A stretch of 50,995 nt of DNA from Muribaculaceae bacterium (GTDB lineage: Bacteria > Bacteroidota > Bacteroidia > Bacteroidales > Muribaculaceae): contig JAMPBB010000002.1 in NCBI GenBank assembly GCA_023666885.1, forward strand, positions 110,959 through 161,953. The letters run 5' to 3'. Below the pieces are notes generated by a model. The model saw only the letters and a program-made list of their open reading frames with translations, did no database searches and was not told where the DNA came from. The first letter of the stretch is position 1. Each line of letters opens with the position of its first letter. Both the position numbers and the translations under genes were made by a program. This document shows, piece after piece, positions 23,152-30,346 of the stretch.

Positions 23152-24222
23152 TCAATGTTTGCGTTCAAAATCGTTCATAGCCTCAATGAGCACATTCACG
23201 CTCTCCATGGGCAGGGCATTGTAAAGCGATGCACGGAAGCCGCCCACTGAGCGGTGACCCTTTATGCCTACTATGCCACGCTCTCCGGCAAAGTCGATAA
23301 AGTCCTTTTCAAGCTCTTTATACTCGGGCTTCATAACGAAGCATACATTCATTATGGAGCGGTCAGCGGGGTCGGTGACGGTGCCGGTAAACATGCGGCT
23401 GGAGTCAATGGCCTCATACAGCTTGCCGGCCTTGGCAAGATCCAGTTTTTCAAGCTCACGCACACCGCCGAGCTGCTTGTAATAACGCAGAGTCTGGAGC
23501 GCCGAGAAAATGGGGAGCACCGGAGGGGTGTTGAACATGGAGCCTTTCTTTATATGTGTGCGATAGTCAAGCATGGTGGGTATGGGGCGGTCCACATGTC
23601 CCAGAGCATCATCACGCACTATCACTATGGTTACACCGGCGGGAGCCAGATTCTTCTGAGCACCGGCATATATGAGGTCATACTTGCTTACATCTATCGG
23701 ACGTGAGAAAATGTCGCTCGACATGTCAGCCACCAAGCGTACAGGGCAGTCAGGGTCGTAGCGCATCTCGGTGCCGTAGATAGTGTTGTTGGATGTAAAG
23801 TGGAAGTAATCAGCATCGGCCGGTACGGTGTAGCCTTTGGGTATGTATGTGAAGTTGGCATCCTTGGAAGAGCCCACTACGTCGACCTCGCCAAAGAGGC
23901 GCGCTTCCTTAATGGCATTCACTGCCCATGTACCGGTCTCGAGATATGCGGCCTTGGAGGCAAGCAGATTGAAGGGCACCATGCAGAACTGAAGGCTGGC
24001 ACCTCCGCCCAAGAACAGCACCGAGTAGCCCTCGGGCACTTCAAGGAGCTCCTTGACAAGAGCCATGGCCTCATCTATTACAGCCTGGAATTCCTTGCTG
24101 CGGTGTGACACTTCGAGCACCGACAGACCGGTTCCGGCAAAATTAAGTATGGCATCAGCCGTGTTTTTGATGGTATACTCACTCAGAATAGAGGGACCTG
24201 CGTAAAAATTATGTTTTTTCAT
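23152..24222 (-). CDS. serC: Phosphoserine aminotransferase
   Basis: PLP enzyme of serine (and pyridoxal) synthesis that transaminates 3-phosphohydroxypyruvate with glutamate. The 356-residue protein starts at the ATG at 24222 ([13 protein letters not shown]); an in-frame upstream extension to 24372 runs through the terminator and promoter and is not coding. [12 protein letters not shown] binds the cofactor phosphate, and the PLP lysine lies in [31 protein letters not shown] is the conserved C-terminal motif. It opens a five-gene operon from a full consensus promoter. Confidence 0.95.
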
Positions 24223-24256
24223 ACTGACTATGAATTTGGTTAGGTTTGTATAGGGG

Positions 24257-24289
24257 CAAAGATAGCATAATAAAAGGAACCGGGGCAAA
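24257..24289 (-). promoter_or_regulatory. Promoter of the serC operon (TTTG-N21-TATCTTTG)
   Basis: On the minus strand, TATCTTTG (24264-24257) follows TTTG (24289-24286) at 21 bp. The -33 lies inside the arm of the terminator hairpin of the serpin operon, so terminator and promoter share bases. Confidence 0.82.
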
Positions 24290-24312
24290 AAAAACTCGTT
24301 TTTTTTGCCCCG
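24281..24312 (-). terminator. Palindromic terminator of the serpin operon
   Basis: A perfect 15-bp palindromic stem (24281-24295 with 24298-24312) combines a 6-bp GC foot with eight A facing eight T and a 2-base (effectively 4-base) loop. It lies 47 bases after the last serpin stop and is symmetrical, so it can work from both sides. Confidence 0.85.
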
Positions 24313-24358
24313 ATTCAACAAATTTAAGCTATCGCCGCCTATCAGAAGCGGCAAAATG

Positions 24359-25579
24359 TCAAAGGTTCTCAATCTTGCCCATGAACAGGATGGCTCCGGT
24401 GCTCTCCTCGCGTATCATGAACAGAAATGGATGATCCAACACAAACGCCAGTTTCCCGTCAAGCAAAGCACCATCCATAGGCTCGCCGGTTACGGCAGCT
24501 GCCTCAGCACCGGATTCATTTATTTCAAACGACACTTCCTGTTCAACGCTACGTACATAGGGCACAGGTGTTGCAAGCCGGGACAAAGCACCGGATTTGA
24601 ACATATCGTTTATACCCAGACTCCGTAATGCGTAGCCCAGATCATTACGCTGTGTTATCTTGAACTTAGGCACACGAATATATCCCACCTCCGGCATAAG
24701 ATGCTTCATGGCATAATCAATAGCTGTAGGTGTTAACGCCTCAAGAGCGTCATTCACGGATTTGTCCGGACAGATAAACACCATACTGTAAGCCTTATTG
24801 CCAAAGCTCTTTTTCACCAATGAATAATCTGCACATTCAAAGTAAGCGAATGCTCCGGTTTCTTCCATCATATCCACCCTGTTAAGGTTATAGTCCGCGC
24901 TGTAAAACTTCATCTTTTTTGTGTTATATTCTTTGAATGGAACCGTCCACTCACCTTTAAAATATGTGGCGTTAAGAAGCGCTCCCTTAATACCTGGATC
25001 GGGAGAATCATAAAACTTTGGAATCAAGCCGGCTGTCTTTTCACTTACCCAGTCATTGATACGCTTTATTCCGGCATCGCTCCCGAAATCAATATTGATT
25101 ATTGGCGCTTCATATATCCGTCCTACGAGTTCGGCATATTCTGAATTGGCCGTGTATCCGTTGGCCAACCATACGCTGTTGGCCAGCACCACCTTTGAGC
25201 GATAATCCGTCTTAGGCAGAACATCCATAAGCTGGGCATTAAGGGTATTGAGCGCATCAAGAGAGGTGGCATTACCCTCAAGTCCCATAGCCGTAAGGAT
25301 TTCATCCATCACTGATTCCGATGCTCCGTTGACCGCCAATGAGACACATAGCGACACACTAAGCGGTGACAAAACTATGTTTTCTTTATCATGGGCTGCA
25401 CATAATTCCTTGAATACCTCCAAGCCGAAATCATTAGCTCCATTCATGGCCCTGCTCTCATCCGATGAAAGAGTCATCACTATCGGCTCGCTATATTCTT
25501 CTTGAACGGGGTCATCATCATTGCTACAACCCGACGCCAATAGCAGCCAGGGAGCTAACAAAAAGATTACTTTCTTCAT
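24359..25579 (-). CDS. Serpin lipoprotein (probably inhibitory)
   Basis: A 406-residue serpin, a suicide inhibitor that traps serine or cysteine proteases. A lipoprotein signal ends LLLASGC (Cys18), followed by SNDDD, an acidic stretch like the Bacteroidetes surface-export signal. Serpin landmarks are complete: [46 protein letters not shown], and [21 protein letters not shown]. The reactive loop hinge is [10 protein letters not shown] (355-364), with small residues at P12-P9 as in true inhibitors. Counting 17 residues from Glu355 puts P1 at Ala371 or Leu372-Leu373, suggesting elastase-like targets. It is last in the four-gene operon, 21 bases after the second serpin. Its signal peptide is near-identical to that of the C10 protease. 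Confidence 0.93.
24368..24401. repeat. 34-bp core of the serpin 3'-end repeat, third copy
   Basis: A stretch of 34 bases encoding the serpin C-terminal strand (GAILFMGKI) is identical to the matching part of the two 274-bp repeats at 25513 and 28118. Outside it, this copy diverges quickly, so it is an older or converted copy. Confidence 0.8.
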
Positions 25580-25786
25580 GATATGGTTGGTATAATTTTA
25601 TTAGTCAAGGTGTTCAATCTTGCCCATGAACAGGATGGCTCCGGTGCATTCCTGACGCACTACGAATATGAACGGGCGGTCAATGGCAATCACTCCCTCC
25701 GGCAGCGGCTCGGTGGCCTTGGCGGACACCGATACACGAGGAGCGCACGCCTCCCCCTCCATGCCAATGCCCGACAGCATCTGCGA
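25513..25786. repeat. 274-bp direct repeat, copy A
   Basis: It matches 28118-28391 without gaps, with 8 mismatches by my count (about 97%). It spans the last about 62 codons of one serpin-like gene (its reactive loop and C-terminus), the 21-bp gap, and the signal-peptide start of the next gene. Flanking gene bodies are unrelated or far more diverged. Confidence 0.93.
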
Positions 25787-26851
25787 GCTTACATCCATTT
25801 TACCTGAAGCAAGGGAGATACTGTTTAGTTGAGTGTTAATTGTGACTGCTGCATCTGTACGGGATGATGCAACGTTAAGATTGTCCAATCCTATTTTAGA
25901 CATAACTTCAGACAAGTTCTGCTCAGCAACAAAACTAAAATCAGGGAATGCCATAGTGACAAGGTCAAAATAGAAGGAGCCTCTCATAGGTGTACCCTTT
26001 TCATCATATCTGACATACATTGACGACGGTATACGGAAATCATTAATAATATCATCTACCGACCCATTCCCTTTAGGCATATAATAGAATATATCGCTTC
26101 TTAGATGACTGCCATAATTAGGATTCCGTCCGCCACAACAAAGTATATAATAAGACTGACCCGCCTGATACAGATTTATCGTCCATTCTGTCACGTTCAT
26201 GTCTACCATTTTGCCATTACCCGTTGCGGATGTGAATGAAGTTGAGCCCACAGACTGTACACCATTGTAAGCATCCATAACATCTCTATAAACGGACAGG
26301 AAGAGGATATCCGTTTCCGGCACGGCCTTCACCGATGGAATGACCTCAAGGTCAACAATTTTTGATATCCACCAACGTACCCGACTGCGATCTGTGTCCC
26401 GTGACATATCTACATTGAAAATTTCTACGCTAGCTGAACCTAAATAGTCATTACCCGTATTTGCGTTAGCAAAATCTTCATCAAGCCACACGGAAGCAGC
26501 ATCATTCGTTTCAGAGCATCTTTGAATTCGACATAAATTATCCCATTTATCATCATCAAAATCCGATCCAAATGATTGCATAATGCTGCGACGAGTTTTC
26601 TCATCGGAGATTTCACTCAACACCTTCAAATTTGAGAAAAATGTATACGGAGAGAACATAACATTTTCTCCTTTCGCATCTGCACAAAGAGCCTTGAATG
26701 CTGATATACACCAGTCGTTATACTCATTGATAATCGGGTTTATTTCATATTCAGTATCAAAAACAGTTTGATGTTTCTCCGGCTCCCGATCAGAGCACGA
26801 ATATATAAATAGGGATAATGTCAAGATTATAAATGATTTAATATGTTTCAT
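25601..26851 (-). CDS. Divergent serpin-like lipoprotein
   Basis: A 416-residue lipoprotein. The ATG at 26851 gives MKHIKSFIILTLSLFIYSC with lipobox Cys19; a longer in-frame reading overlaps the C10 gene and is rejected. NDWCISAFKALCADAKGENVMFSPYTFFSNL matches the serpin N-terminus, but the middle (for example LFLSVYRDVMDAYNG in place of [11 protein letters not shown]) is strongly divergent. The last 62 residues are near-identical to the serpin-like protein at 28206, including the loop GMEGEACAPRVSVSAKATEP and RPFIFVVRQECTGAILF. The hinge carries Cys, Pro and Arg where inhibitory serpins have small residues, so inhibition is doubtful. It lies 10 bases after the C10 gene. The body is AT-rich, unlike its 3' end. 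Confidence 0.85.
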   Translation of the reverse strand: MKHIKSFIILTLSLFIYSCSDREPEKHQTVFDTEYEINPIINEYNDWCISAFKALCADAKGENVMFSPYTFFSNLKVLSEISDEKTRRSIMQSFGSDFDDDKWDNLCRIQRCSETNDAASVWLDEDFANANTGNDYLGSASVEIFNVDMSRDTDRSRVRWWISKIVDLEVIPSVKAVPETDILFLSVYRDVMDAYNGVQSVGSTSFTSATGNGKMVDMNVTEWTINLYQAGQSYYILCCGGRNPNYGSHLRSDIFYYMPKGNGSVDDIINDFRIPSSMYVRYDEKGTPMRGSFYFDLVTMAFPDFSFVAEQNLSEVMSKIGLDNLNVASSRTDAAVTINTQLNSISLASGKMDVSSQMLSGIGMEGEACAPRVSVSAKATEPLPEGVIAIDRPFIFVVRQECTGAILFMGKIEHLD

Positions 26852-26861
26852 ATCATTTTTT

Positions 26862-28184
26862 TTAATATATATTATATAATAATACAAAGTCAGCATTATA
26901 CCTATAATTCGTTTTTTTACCAGGATTATATGTCCTGTTTGATTCAAAGACTCCGGACAAATAGTAGCCTCCGGCATCAGATATTTCATTTGTCCCGATA
27001 GAGGTTAACTTATCACTAAATCCATCGCCCCAATTACAATGGAAGTACAATTTGCTATCATAGTCAGTATAGCAATGCATTCCTGTATCTAAATTCTTGT
27101 AGGCGATTGAGCTCCAGTTGCTGAATGCGCCATCAATGAGCCACATATGACATGTTGATTCTGTAGTCTTCATACCGGTACTATCTGTCACTGTTTTTAC
27201 ACCATTAGCAGTCACAGCTACAGGATACCCCAACTCAACATTCTCTCTAATCACAACGGCATCATAACCATTATATCGTACGACGTCGCTATAGCCTTTT
27301 TCTTTTAAAAAAGTCACGACATTACCCAATACTGTAGATGAACCCTCAAGAGAATATTCCGTATTCATACTGATCCCAAATTCTTTACATATTCTGCCTA
27401 TAGCATCACCATATGTTGTGCCATAGTCAAAAACATCCATATAATCGTGAAACTGACTCCAATTATACGGCTCGCCGGATTCACGATATTCAGGTTTCTT
27501 ATAATAATTCATGATTTGAGCTACCGCTATTACAGCACATCCCGCAGGAGCGTTTTTTGTCCCAAACATAGGTGTAAAGGTATTAAACGGCGCATTCTGG
27601 TGCCAACGCGTTGTAATAAAGGGCTGTATATTCAGGGATATACCAGACTCTCTTAATCCAACTCCACAACGATGCCCATTATGCCACACGTAAGCTGGTT
27701 CAATTACTGATATTGAGTCAAAAGGAATCAGGCCGGGCAGTCCTCCATTCTGTGACAATGAACGCGAAGGGAGATATTCGAAGGCAAGTTCCATAAAGAA
27801 TTCCTGACCAGCATTATCTTCAGGTGAGAAGCGACCTTCGGTATCCATGGCAAGGACTTCGGGCATGCGGGCATCAGCCGAAACAACTGCATAGCCGCCT
27901 TCGGCAAAATTAATGATGTAACATGCGTCATCACCCATAGATGCACGTGATGCAGATGGATATGTACGGACCTCAATAGGGGTAAGCATTAACGATGCAC
28001 GCGATTCAGACCCAGCCAATTCACGCACCGCACCTTTGGCTATGTTTAGTGCCGTAACTTCATTTATAAACTGCGCCGGTACAATGTCAGCACCATCAGG
28101 CATAACAGGTTCAGTCACATCATCATTGCTACAACCTGACGCCAATAGCAGCCAGGGAGCTAACAAAAAGATTACTTTTTTCAT
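26862..28184 (-). CDS. C10 family cysteine protease lipoprotein (streptopain-like)
   Basis: A 440-residue secreted lipoprotein protease of the SpeB/interpain type. The lipoprotein signal LLLASGC (Cys18) with SNDD following suggests surface display. The region to about residue 190 is a Spi-type propeptide (YIINFAEGGYAVVSADARMP, VLAMDTEGRF). The catalytic Cys216 is in NAPAGCAVIAVAQIMNYY, the His346 in CHMWLIDGAF, and Asn384-Trp385 in FHCNWGDGFSD; the last differs from the usual NWGWGG but keeps Asn-Trp-Gly. It should mature by cutting off the propeptide. It is enclosed by serpin-like genes on both sides, with gaps of 21 and 10 bases. The 5' end is shared by sequence with the serpin at 25579. 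Confidence 0.93.
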   Translation of the reverse strand: MKKVIFLLAPWLLLASGCSNDDVTEPVMPDGADIVPAQFINEVTALNIAKGAVRELAGSESRASLMLTPIEVRTYPSASRASMGDDACYIINFAEGGYAVVSADARMPEVLAMDTEGRFSPEDNAGQEFFMELAFEYLPSRSLSQNGGLPGLIPFDSISVIEPAYVWHNGHRCGVGLRESGISLNIQPFITTRWHQNAPFNTFTPMFGTKNAPAGCAVIAVAQIMNYYKKPEYRESGEPYNWSQFHDYMDVFDYGTTYGDAIGRICKEFGISMNTEYSLEGSSTVLGNVVTFLKEKGYSDVVRYNGYDAVVIRENVELGYPVAVTANGVKTVTDSTGMKTTESTCHMWLIDGAFSNWSSIAYKNLDTGMHCYTDYDSKLYFHCNWGDGFSDKLTSIGTNEISDAGGYYLSGVFESNRTYNPGKKTNYRYNADFVLLYNIY

Positions 28185-28391
28185 GATATGGTTGGTATAA
28201 TTTTATTAGTCAAGGTGTTCAATCTTGCCCATGAACAGGATGGCTCCGGTGCATTCCTGACGCACTACGAATATGAACGGGCGGTCAATGGCAATCACTC
28301 CCTCAGGCAGCGGCTCAGTGGCCTTGGCGGACACCGATACACGAGGAGCACACGCCTCGCCCTCCATACCTATGCCCGACAGCATCTGCGA
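28118..28391. repeat. 274-bp direct repeat, copy B
   Basis: The second copy of the repeat at 25513-25786, offset 2605 bp, gap-free and with about 8 mismatches. It covers the 3' end of the first serpin-like gene, the gap, and the first about 22 codons of the C10 protease gene. It is richer in GC than the flanking coding sequence. Confidence 0.93.
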
Positions 28392-29477
28392 AGAGGCAAT
28401 CCATCCATTGCGGTCAGATGGCGCAAATATATTAGACTGCTTGTTCCCATCCAATGACACACCTGAACCAAGTGCTGCCAAATGGAGATTATCGAGTCCT
28501 AAAGATTTATATATCACCCCAAGATCTATTTGATTCTCAACCCTGACCGCAGGTATTGCCACAGGACTGTGCTCAACTCTATATGTCCCAAGCCCTGTCC
28601 CTTTACTATCCTTAAGCTCCGACAGAATTTTTGTATCAGAAACAATGGGAATATATACGAAATTATCAATTACATGCTCTAAGTCCGATGACTCCACAGG
28701 AAGATAAATATGTATATAATTCAAGGTACGATTAGAAATATTACTACTCAATATGGAATAGTGCTGAATTATCTTATAATCCATCCCTGAACCGGTAAAT
28801 ATATCAGCCTCATGAGGAAATACGCTCATATCCATGCTAACACTCTCCCCCGAAGACCTATTATACGCACCTCTTACACGCAATGCTACATCCATATATG
28901 TGTTATTCAGGAAAGTCGATGCATAGATAAGATCGGGCGCACTATATGAGTCAAGGACTGACTCTACTGCCATGTCACCAAGGGCATCTTTAATCCATCG
29001 GTCAACATTCCACTTGCCTGAACGCGAAGCCAAATCCTCGGAAAAGACATCGGTGTTAAGCAGTTCCGTACATCGCTTGAATAATCCTTTATCAAAATTT
29101 GAGGAACGGCTATCAATCCATATAGAGCTTTCAATGTTTGAATCATTATTCCTATAACAAGTGCTTATATAATCCATACCTGACTGCCCGGTAAGGGGAA
29201 ACAATCGTTTAATTATACCCTGCTTTGTTGCGGCATCAGTACCGTCAGCTATCATCATCAAGTTTGATATGGCCGAACATGGTGAAAACAGCACATTTTC
29301 ACCTTTTGCATCCGCGCAAAGGGACTTGAACGCTGCCACGCTCCAATCATTGTACTCGCTGATAACCTTAGCTTGATCAACATAAGCCGGCTCATTACTT
29401 CCTTCAGAGCACGAGGTTAGCATGGCCGCTATCAGCAGCCATGGGGCAAGAAGCAGATATGTCCTTTTTTCAATCAT
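28206..29477 (-). CDS. Divergent serpin-like lipoprotein, first gene of the operon
   Basis: A 423-residue lipoprotein with signal peptide and lipobox LTSC (Cys23). The N-terminal NDWSVAAFKSLCADAKGENVLFSP segment matches the serpin at 25601 and ordinary serpins; IYASTFLNNTYMDVALRV corresponds to the family's conserved central strand but is degenerate. The final about 62 residues, starting SSQMLSGIGMEGEACAP, equal those of the protein at 25601, so the two share one reactive loop on different bodies. The hinge contains Cys, Pro and Arg, unlike inhibitory serpins. It opens the operon; a candidate promoter lies 147-179 bases upstream. It may inhibit, cap or carry the C10 protease, which is speculation. 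Confidence 0.85.
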   Translation of the reverse strand: MIEKRTYLLLAPWLLIAAMLTSCSEGSNEPAYVDQAKVISEYNDWSVAAFKSLCADAKGENVLFSPCSAISNLMMIADGTDAATKQGIIKRLFPLTGQSGMDYISTCYRNNDSNIESSIWIDSRSSNFDKGLFKRCTELLNTDVFSEDLASRSGKWNVDRWIKDALGDMAVESVLDSYSAPDLIYASTFLNNTYMDVALRVRGAYNRSSGESVSMDMSVFPHEADIFTGSGMDYKIIQHYSILSSNISNRTLNYIHIYLPVESSDLEHVIDNFVYIPIVSDTKILSELKDSKGTGLGTYRVEHSPVAIPAVRVENQIDLGVIYKSLGLDNLHLAALGSGVSLDGNKQSNIFAPSDRNGWIASSQMLSGIGMEGEACAPRVSVSAKATEPLPEGVIAIDRPFIFVVRQECTGAILFMGKIEHLD

Positions 29478-29782
29478 AGGTAATGCATTTTTATCTGGTT
29501 TATTATTATATCAATCACAGCGGCAGCACCTCTGTGCCGGCTAAATCACATCGTAAAAGATACGTTTTTTCAATCGGATGCAATATAGACATTTTTTCTG
29601 ATAATGTTTACTTTATTTTGCCGAAAAGATAAGATTTTAACATTTGAGGACTCAAATTTCTAAAAAACAATAATACGGGGACGATGGATTAAACGTTTGC
29701 CCAAAAGGATTGTCTTATTCATACAAACTTCAGTACTGATACGGAATAAAAAACACAGAAACAAACTAAATACAGAAACATC
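29478..29782. other. 305-bp intergenic region between divergent genes
   Basis: AT-rich region between the serpin operon and a small exported protein. It holds a candidate minus-strand promoter (29624-29656) and, nearer the serpin start, a GC-rich stretch (29519-29542) that could form a hairpin in the serpin leader. I see no clear promoter for the plus-strand gene and no RNA gene. Confidence 0.5.
29624..29656 (-). promoter_or_regulatory. Candidate promoter of the serpin/C10 operon
   Basis: On the minus strand, TTTG (29656-29653) and TATCTTTT (29631-29624) are 21 bp apart, one base off the -7 consensus. A second TATCTTTT at 29562-29555 lacks a good -33. The first gives a leader of about 145 nt. 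Confidence 0.45.
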
Positions 29783-30346
29783 ATGAACAAGAAAATTATA
29801 GCTCTGGCTTCGGCCGCATTGGTATTCTGCGCTTCAAGCGTATTTGCCGCAAATGACAATAAGAACAGTGACAACAAGAACTGCACCGGCACCGAAAAGT
29901 GCGATGCACAGAAGTGTGACAAGAACAAGAAGAACAGCAAGGACAGGAAGGATCGCAAAGGCGGAAAGAGCCGTAAGGATGGCAACAACAAGGGTGCCCG
30001 TCAGGCAATGAATCCGTTTGAAGGTCTGAACCTTACCGAGCAGCAGGCCATCGCCATAAAGGCCATACCTAACCCTCGTGAGGTAATGAAAGAAGCCGTA
30101 AAAAACGACACTCAGAAAAAGACTGACATCCGGACTCTGGCCCGCACCGTACGCGCCGACTATCTGAACAGCGTAAAGGGTGTGCTCACTCCCCAGCAGT
30201 ATCTACAGTTTCTTGAAAACTCATACATGAACAACATACAGGGCGGCCCACAGCGTCCCGGCCAAAAGGGTATGAAGCCCAGCAAGGACGGACGTAAAGC
30301 TGACAAGCCTCAGGGACAGCGCAGCCAGGATCAGGCCCGCCGATAA
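29783..30346 (+). CDS. Small basic exported protein, Spy/DUF4890-like
   Basis: A 187-residue protein with a clear signal peptide (cut near VFAA-ND). The mature N-terminus is very rich in Lys, Asn and Asp and carries three cysteines (34, 40, 45) in a C-x5-C-x4-C spacing. The central NLTEQQAIAIKAI and LTPQQYLQFLENSYMN motifs resemble the LTxxQ helices of periplasmic Spy/CpxP-like and DUF4890 proteins of Bacteroidetes. The C-terminus is again basic and low in complexity. In relatives such proteins are envelope-stress or metal-linked chaperones; here the role is unknown. It stands alone and is followed by a perfect palindromic terminator. Confidence 0.75.
   Translation: MNKKIIALASAALVFCASSVFAANDNKNSDNKNCTGTEKCDAQKCDKNKKNSKDRKDRKGGKSRKDGNNKGARQAMNPFEGLNLTEQQAIAIKAIPNPREVMKEAVKNDTQKKTDIRTLARTVRADYLNSVKGVLTPQQYLQFLENSYMNNIQGGPQRPGQKGMKPSKDGRKADKPQGQRSQDQARR

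What the first reader, a model, noticed from the sequence alone, without database searches (positions are those of the whole stretch)
24359..29477. Serpin / C10 cysteine protease lipoprotein operon
Four lipoprotein genes in one operon (gaps 21, 10 and 21 bases): two divergent serpin-like proteins, a C10 (SpeB/interpain-like) protease with intact Cys216/His346/Asn384, and a canonical serpin. Known C10 loci pair the protease with Spi or staphostatin inhibitors; a protease set among serpins of the same operon is unusual. The serpins could protect the cell from its own C10 enzyme (cross-class inhibition), defend against host proteases, or carry the enzyme. Acidic residues after the lipidated Cys in two of them suggest surface display.
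Basis: partly seen in the sequence, partly recalled or inferred. Interest (0 to 1): 0.78.

Follow-up and report, generated by a model that had tools for sequence, protein, structure and literature searches.

The report
Gut-bacterial protease–serpin lipoprotein operon
A gut bacterium makes a protease and serpin-type protease inhibitors from one operon, and this pairing recurs across its family of gut bacteria, which suggests that serpins, best known from animals, can sit in the slot that other bacteria fill with small dedicated inhibitors; no interaction has been tested.

Summary
In detail: four lipoprotein genes on the minus strand (serpin-like A, C10 protease, serpin-like B, canonical serpin; gaps 21, 10, 21 bases). 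The C10 keeps Cys216, His346 and Asn384 and carries an I69 (Spi-type) prodomain. The canonical serpin has an intact inhibitory hinge; A and B do not. The pairing is not private to this genome. In its family (probably Muribaculaceae), short C10 lipoproteins have a serpin as next gene in 8 of 18 cases in the genus and in 46 of 101 read outside it (the latter sample leans towards serpin-linked C10s). In 60 of the other 65 cases the next gene encodes another exported protein, mostly of unknown family. None of 48 high-scoring, mostly large C10s of the genus lies within 10 kb of a serpin. A close relative lacks the C10 at two such loci but keeps both serpins. Best reading: a protease-inhibitor operon with a serpin in the inhibitor slot. 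That the serpin inhibits this C10 is inferred. New variant of a known kind.

The parts
28206..29477 (-). Gene A: divergent serpin-like lipoprotein, 423 aa
   Evidence: PF00079 62.6 bits; phmmer to solved serpins, best E 1e-8; outside the own genome one match at E 1e-8 or better among 297 family genomes, 23% identity, E 4.8e-9
26862..28184 (-). C10 cysteine protease lipoprotein, 440 aa
   Evidence: PF01640 88.2 bits; interpain A is the best PDB match, E 3e-7
27804..28076 (-). I69 (Spi-type) inhibitory prodomain of the C10, residues 37-127
   Evidence: PF13734 48.4 bits; residues 85-138 match solved SpeB zymogen chains
27537..27539 (-). Catalytic Cys216 codon
   Evidence: invariant in 22 of 22 rows; 115 of 121 in the wider set
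27147..27149 (-). Catalytic His346 codon
   Evidence: invariant in 22 of 22 rows; 113 of 121 in the wider set
27033..27035 (-). Asn384 codon
   Evidence: 90% or more of 22 rows; 84 of 121 in the wider set
25601..26851 (-). Gene B: divergent serpin-like lipoprotein, 416 aa
   Evidence: PF00079 60.6 bits; 27% identical to A before the last 61 residues
24359..25579 (-). Canonical serpin lipoprotein, 406 aa
   Evidence: PF00079 270.8 bits; nearest solved serpins: conserpin E 3e-47, 5ncs E 1.3e-46, entries named miropin (5nct, 5ncw) about 9e-39
24431..24517 (-). Hinge and reactive-centre loop of the canonical serpin ([10 protein letters not shown]...)
   Evidence: read from the alignments
28118..28391 (.). 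Repeat copy 1: last 61 codons and stop of A + 21-nt gap + first 22 codons of the C10
   Evidence: 274 nt, 8 mismatches to copy 2, all silent
25513..25786 (.). Repeat copy 2: last 61 codons and stop of B + 21-nt gap + first 22 codons of the canonical serpin
24277..24316 (-). Terminator-like hairpin after the operon
   Evidence: 18 pairs then a T-rich tail; 4 such sites found in the region against 4.5 in shuffles

Best explanation
A cell-envelope protease-inhibitor operon in which a serpin fills the inhibitor slot of a C10 protease. Shown by sequence: the C10 is a lipoprotein zymogen with its own I69 prodomain and catalytic residues; the canonical serpin is a lipoprotein with an inhibitory hinge; C10-then-serpin order recurs in the family. 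Inferred: both are anchored at the outer membrane. The prodomain holds the zymogen silent. If the C10 is activated too early or turns on its own cell, the co-exported serpin offers its loop, is cleaved and traps the enzyme (cross-class inhibition, known for some serpins against papain-like enzymes). Genes A and B are lineage-specific, hinge-less serpin copies whose loop-bearing C-terminus has been homogenised by recombination. They are more likely loop-presenting substrates or decoys, or decayed copies, than suicide inhibitors.
For: (1) All 3 serpin loci of the own genome hold a short C10 upstream on the same strand (at contig 13 a third gene lies between). (2) In the genus, 8 of 18 short C10s read have a serpin as next gene and 10 of 18 another exported protein, whereas none of the 48 C10 rows above 171 bits (47 of them in frames of 551 aa or more) lies within 10 kb of a listed serpin (coordinates). 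(3) From the serpin side, 80 loci (one per genome outside the genus): 19 have a C10 of 300 aa or more within 300 bp upstream on the same strand, 4 more a C10 fragment, 0 a C10 within 300 bp downstream; L139 is one more by eye, its serpin being split. (4) From the C10 side, 101 short C10 ORFs outside the genus: next gene serpin in 44, plus L142 and L174 where a small opposite ORF hid it (gaps 197 and 93 bp); median gap of the 44 is 21 bp. (5) 42 of 57 linked serpins of 340 aa or more keep small residues in the hinge. (6) G029 retains two intact serpins at loci where its close relative G025 has a C10 in between, and shows no C10 match. (7) Passages read in PMC2873492 and PMC3462683: Bacteroides C10 genes are co-transcribed with small exported, often lipoprotein, staphostatin-like inhibitors. 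PMC7296668: KLIKK proteases are preceded by lipoprotein inhibitors (potempins). PMC8201313: bacterial serpins inhibit papain (C. thermocellum) and gingipain K (miropin).
Against: No binding or inhibition data and no structure model. The C10 already has an I69 prodomain. Serpins occur without C10: 57 of 80 family loci have neither a C10 nor a C10 fragment directly upstream (some of these end at a contig edge, and L139 is among them only through the script's filter). In this window gene A stands upstream, not downstream, of the C10. A and B have no hinge. About half of short C10s have a quite different partner; among 50 such partners scanned are one Mfa2-like and two BACON-domain proteins, so the slot is not only for inhibitors. 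Catalytically substituted C10s are not significantly rarer beside serpins (1 of 55 loci against 6 of 60, p 0.12). Mirror-tree signal is weak (Pearson 0.58 but Spearman 0.09, 30 pairs).
Confidence: 0.45

Rival explanations
1. Weapon and shield: the C10 attacks host or competitor proteins and the co-expressed serpins protect the cell from foreign, mainly serine, proteases; the two do not act on each other.
For: 57 of 80 family serpin loci show no C10 directly upstream. Miropin of Tannerella acts on host proteases and on proteases of other bacteria (passages in PMC8201313, and PMC7296668). Loop sequences differ widely among linked serpins, as expected for many targets. Three genus genomes with serpins (G003, G022, G029) have no C10 match.
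Against: Does not by itself explain the strict order (C10 or C10 fragment within 300 bp upstream in 23 of 80 loci, downstream in 0) or why the same slot behind short C10s is filled by other exported proteins.
Confidence: 0.33
2. The gene behind a short C10 encodes a client of the protease: the C10 cuts or releases its neighbour at the cell surface, and serpins are one client whose loop cleavage switches their conformation.
For: Partners are very diverse, exported by a simple signal pattern (50 of 101 next genes outside the genus, 10 of 18 in it) and tightly spaced; few match Pfam. A and B keep an identical loop region while their bodies differ (27% identity).
Against: Canonical hinge kept in 42 of 57 linked serpins, which a mere substrate would not need.
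Confidence: 0.12
3. No functional link: exported-lipoprotein genes are shuffled into shared operons and serpins are common there by chance or hitch-hiking.
For: The operon is AT-rich against its surroundings (41-46% against mostly 50-56% G+C). The 274-nt repeat shows recombination between lipoprotein genes. In the own genome related serpins (42% identity) stand with very different C10s (22%).
Against: 46 of 101 next genes are serpins in genomes with few serpins each (for an assumed chance of 6 in 1900, p about 1e-86; the sample leans to serpin-linked C10s, but the genus sample, 8 of 18, does not). High-scoring C10s of the same genus show none within 10 kb.
Confidence: 0.1

Closest known systems
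Bacteroides C10 protease operons (bfp-bfi of B. fragilis, btp-bti of B. thetaiotaomicron)
   Same: C10 lipoprotein zymogen; small gap to an adjacent exported, often lipoprotein, putative inhibitor; co-transcription shown there for several pairs (passages of PMC2873492 and PMC3462683)
   Different: The inhibitors there are 116-138 aa staphostatin-like proteins on either side of the protease gene; here serpins of about 400-440 aa downstream. The word serpin occurs 0 times in the main text of either paper
SpeB-Spi of Streptococcus pyogenes
   Same: C10 protease with a linked inhibitor; the Spi/I69 domain is present here, but as the C10's own prodomain
   Different: Spi is a separate propeptide analogue thought to act in the cytoplasm (passages of PMC2873492, PMC3462683); no separate Spi gene was seen in this operon (Pfam of its four genes)
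KLIKK protease-potempin pairs of Tannerella forsythia
   Same: Lipoprotein inhibitors encoded next to their protease (passages of PMC7296668)
   Different: Potempins are small lipoproteins encoded upstream of the protease; they are not serpins in the passages read. Whether any partner found here is a potempin was not tested
Miropin and other bacterial serpins (group T)
   Same: Bacteroidales serpin with broad, partly cross-class inhibition (passages of PMC8201313, PMC6718151, PMC8233489); miropin entries are among the PDB matches
   Different: No linked C10 protease is mentioned in the passages read; miropin is described as protection against host and other proteases

Membership tests
Serpin superfamily (canonical gene 24359-25579) | Full-length PF00079 match above cut-off | tested here: met
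   270.8 bits, profile 2-369 of 370
Serpin superfamily (canonical gene 24359-25579) | Inhibitory hinge with small residues P14-P8 | tested here: met
   [10 protein letters not shown]; the hinge rule itself is recalled
Serpin superfamily (A and B) | PF00079 match above cut-off | tested here: met
   62.6 and 60.6 bits
Serpin superfamily (A and B) | Inhibitory hinge | tested here: not met
   GIGMEGEACAPRVSVS in place of the hinge; so serpin-like, not filed as inhibitory serpins
Peptidase family C10 | PF01640 match and Cys/His dyad | tested here: met
   88.2 bits; Cys216, His346 invariant in 22 of 22
Peptidase family C10 | Proteolytic activity | not testable with these tools
   no assay
SpeB/Spi-type prodomain (I69) | PF13734 domain before the catalytic domain | tested here: met
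   48.4 bits, residues 37-127
Co-encoded protease-inhibitor pair (Bfp-Bfi / KLIKK-potempin type) | Adjacent genes, same strand, short gap, recurring in relatives | tested here: met
Co-encoded protease-inhibitor pair (Bfp-Bfi / KLIKK-potempin type) | Inhibitor acts on the linked protease | not testable with these tools
   needs proteins
Co-encoded protease-inhibitor pair (Bfp-Bfi / KLIKK-potempin type) | Co-transcription | not testable with these tools
   only short gaps and a terminator-like hairpin after the last gene
Co-encoded protease-inhibitor pair (Bfp-Bfi / KLIKK-potempin type) | Co-evolution of the two partners | tested here: inconclusive
   30 pairs: Pearson 0.58 (0 of 5000 permutations as high), Spearman 0.09; same nearest neighbour in 12 of 30

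The most novel reading that the evidence does not exclude
Short C10 lipoproteins of this family are a polymorphic protease system with an exchangeable partner slot directly downstream. Serpins are the most common recognisable occupant (46 of 101 next genes read outside the genus), and the unknown exported proteins in the same slot (50 of 101) include new classes of cysteine-protease inhibitors or immunity proteins. In this window two serpin-like proteins have become loop-presenting decoys kept in step by gene conversion.
Probability: 0.3. Interest if true: 0.8.

Novelty: new variant of a known kind. Interest (0 to 1): 0.6.

Why it matters
The physiological role of bacterial serpins is mostly open (so stated in a passage of PMC8201313). 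A recurrent operon with a C10 protease names a candidate target that can be tested with two proteins from one locus, and would make serpins a further class of inhibitor paired with C10 enzymes beside Spi and the staphostatin-like proteins. The same slot holds dozens of exported proteins without a known family, a ready list of possible new cysteine-protease inhibitors from gut commensals.

Tried and rejected
Structure prediction of A (alignment A5) and of the C10 (A6) was not possible, so no fold comparison was made. The search for related loci failed with the broad alignments A1 and A2 and worked with the narrower A4. Rejected: that linkage selects for an intact hinge (42 of 57 linked against 51 of 84 unlinked; the pattern fails on serpins with C-terminal extensions, so the two numbers are not comparable). 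Rejected as unproven: that catalytically dead C10s avoid serpins (p 0.12; an earlier count had left out L141 and gave 0.028). Rejected: an 11-member family among the non-serpin partners; the alignment of ten of them shows no shared core beyond the signal peptide. The first C10 profile was contaminated by the shared signal peptide and hit the canonical serpin; it was rebuilt without such rows. Loss asymmetry: several loci have a broken or missing C10 beside an intact serpin (L132, L149, L157 and L158, L167, L126, and G029 twice) and one has an intact C10 beside a split serpin (L139); most of these loci were found through serpins, so this count is biased and I draw only a weak hint from it. The C10 tree (53 rows) needs 8 label changes for serpin linkage (shuffled mean 16.1; at least 3 forced by starred branches), so the association was gained or lost several times, but its sampling also leans to serpin loci. 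A promoter for gene A was not found. Papers: 0 held both serpin and peptidase C10; serpin with 'C10 protease' and bacteroid gave 2, seen only in the listing; serpin with interpain gave 4, serpin with Muribaculaceae and protease 16, 'bacterial serpin' with operon terms 741 of which 20 were listed; no title or abstract start in these listings reports such an operon. Subscription papers and preprints are not held. PMC4404884, PMC7296668, PMC8201313, PMC6718151, PMC8233489, PMC2873492 and PMC3462683 were seen as passages, not read whole.

Full report
WHAT IS THERE. Four genes lie head to tail on the minus strand: A (28206-29477), C10 (26862-28184), B (25601-26851) and a canonical serpin (24359-25579), with gaps of 21, 10 and 21 bases. 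Pfam confirms serpin for A, B and the canonical gene (62.6, 60.6 and 270.8 bits, cut-off 27) and Peptidase_C10 (88.2 bits) plus Inhibitor_I69 (48.4 bits) for the protease. All four begin with a lipoprotein-type signal (N-termini); acidic residues follow the lipidated Cys in the C10 (CSNDD) and in the canonical serpin (CSNDDD). That such residues mean surface display in Bacteroidetes is recalled, not tested. A terminator-like hairpin follows the canonical serpin. A Bacteroidetes-type promoter pattern just beyond it precedes the next gene, an aminotransferase. The operon has 41-46% G+C against mostly 50-56% around it.

Positions 25513-25786 and 28118-28391 match over 274 nt with 8 differences. 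Each copy covers the last 61 codons and stop of a divergent serpin (loop region to C-terminus), the 21-base gap, and the first 22 codons of the next gene. So A and B, only 27% identical elsewhere (91 of 335 aligned residues), end identically, and the C10 and the canonical serpin share one signal peptide. All 8 differences are silent, which suggests selection on the shared part since it was copied (0.25 to the eighth power is about 1.5e-5, a rough neutral guess). The usual serpin pattern, a conserved body with a variable loop, is reversed here. Outside the own genome A has one match at E 1e-8 or better among the 297 family genomes searched, a 23%-identical ordinary serpin of G146 at E 4.8e-9.

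THE PAIRING IS NOT PRIVATE. In the own genome all three serpin loci have a short C10 upstream on the same strand: the window, contig 36, and contig 13, where a 198-aa gene lies between and the serpin is frameshifted. In the genus (34 genomes), serpins occur in 11 and C10 in 27. Of 18 short C10s read in sequence, 8 are followed by a serpin and 10 by another exported protein (contig 13 counts among the 10). These 18 came from a PF01640 scan that knows nothing of serpins; pieces at contig ends (G010 contigs 9 and 15) and a fragment in G012 are not counted. The 48 C10 rows above 171 bits (47 in frames of 551 aa or more, one of 409 aa) include none within 10 kb of a serpin listed.

FAMILY LEVEL, SERPIN SIDE. 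Of 297 family genomes, 123 hold a serpin and 273 a C10. From the 112 genomes outside the genus with serpins I fetched one locus in each of 80; the listing was cut, so weaker serpins are missing, and two listed genomes (G186, G216) were left out. A C10 of at least 300 aa lies within 300 bp upstream on the same strand in 19 of 80, a C10 fragment in 4 more, and none within 300 bp downstream. L139, whose serpin is split, is one more by eye. Some of the other 56 end at a contig edge.

FAMILY LEVEL, C10 SIDE. A profile of 22 serpin-linked C10s (A1; one, L075, through a gene between) was run on the 297 genomes. It favours serpin-linked C10s, scored at most five candidates per genome, and its listing was cut, so the shares below overstate serpins and are not a census. 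I fetched the listed frames under 560 aa outside the genus. In these 101 stretches lie 101 C10 ORFs of 300-599 aa (some stretches hold two, some none). The next gene is a serpin in 44, or 46 with L142 and L174, where a small opposite ORF hid it. It is another exported protein in 50, a C10 piece in 2 and something else in 3. Median gaps are 21 bp for serpins, 8 and 14.5 bp for the others. Export signals were called by a simple pattern. Of 50 non-serpin partners scanned (9 of them from the genus) few match Pfam at E 0.01: OMP_b-brl 3, BACON 2, OMP_b-brl_2 2, Mfa2 1 and some weak ones. Directly upstream of the same C10s (within 150 bp, same strand) there is a serpin in 1 of 101, and in the genus in 1 of 18, gene A of this window.

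OUTSIDE THE FAMILY. In an order-wide search (295 genomes) I checked for serpins the 15 genomes with near-full-length short C10 frames, one of them (G054) of the own family: by coordinates one (G400) has the pair. So the pairing is common in this family and rare outside it.

IS THE PROTEASE ACTIVE, THE SERPIN INHIBITORY? Of 121 short C10 ORFs aligned, 110 have both Cys and His at the catalytic columns; 7 have a substitution and 4 are truncated; the Asn column holds Asn in 84 (eight of the eleven odd ones were looked at). The substituted ones are 1 of 55 loci beside serpins and 6 of 60 beside other partners (p 0.12). A hinge with small residues is seen in 42 of 57 linked serpins of 340 aa or more. 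The window's canonical serpin has it; A and B do not. Several genus serpins have bulky hinge residues whether linked or not.

A NATURAL EXPERIMENT. G025 carries two loci with the order small exported gene, C10, serpin (L087, L088). Its relative G029 has both loci at 85-92% DNA identity without the C10 and with intact serpins (L072, L071), and no C10 match in its 65%-complete genome. Because the two C10 copies are about as diverged (57%) as the two serpins (62%), loss in G029 is likelier than two gains. This fits an inhibitor outliving its enzyme, but equally a serpin with targets of its own.

HOW IT PROBABLY WORKS. Published C10 and KLIKK systems place an exported inhibitor beside its protease (passages of PMC2873492, PMC3462683, PMC7296668). 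I read the serpin as such an inhibitor: the I69 prodomain keeps the zymogen silent and the serpin catches enzyme that is activated at the wrong place. Shown: gene order, recurrence, intact residues. Inferred: location, mutual action, protection of self. Confidence 0.45; the main rival, independent weapon and shield, 0.33.

NOVELTY. I found no report of serpin-C10 operons in the listings, which cover open-licence papers only. It is a new variant of a known kind (protease with co-encoded inhibitor). The exchangeable partner slot behind short C10s is the bolder claim.

Noticed in passing
L259-L318 and L077, L084-L086, L089-L092, L094 (next gene downstream of short C10s): Dozens of exported, mostly lipoprotein-type genes with no Pfam match sit in the slot that serpins fill elsewhere; candidates for new protease inhibitors or clients.
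   Followed up: partly
L073:5075-7150 (-): A 691-aa protein with a C-terminal serpin domain directly beside a type II cytosine DNA methyltransferase (PADLOC MTase_II/DruM matches): a serpin in a restriction-modification or defence setting.
   Followed up: partly
L172:3898-5865 (+): Serpin domain followed by a HIRAN domain in one 655-aa ORF.
   Followed up: no
L097:4050-5729 (-); similar ORF lengths in L095, L096, L099-L102, L104, L105: Long serpin ORFs of genus g17; the one scanned (L097) ends in a TonB_C domain. The others were not scanned.
   Followed up: no
L068, L070, L071, L072, L087, L088, L110: A small exported-looking protein of about 110-145 aa lies upstream of the C10 or serpin; no Pfam match in the five scanned.
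   Followed up: partly
G000 contig 13 (L075:4993-8291): In the own genome a second C10-serpin locus looks decayed: serpin split by a frameshift, C10 with an in-frame stop in the profile match and without the Asn at its C-terminus.
   Followed up: partly
window 24000-30000: The operon is about 10 points lower in G+C than the flanks, as for acquired or fast-evolving surface genes.
   Followed up: no
window 1491, 20627, 24257, 44630, 49257: Five matches to the Bacteroidetes-type promoter pattern TTTG-N(17-24)-TANNTTTG against 0.73 expected in shuffles; the pattern itself is recalled.
   Followed up: no
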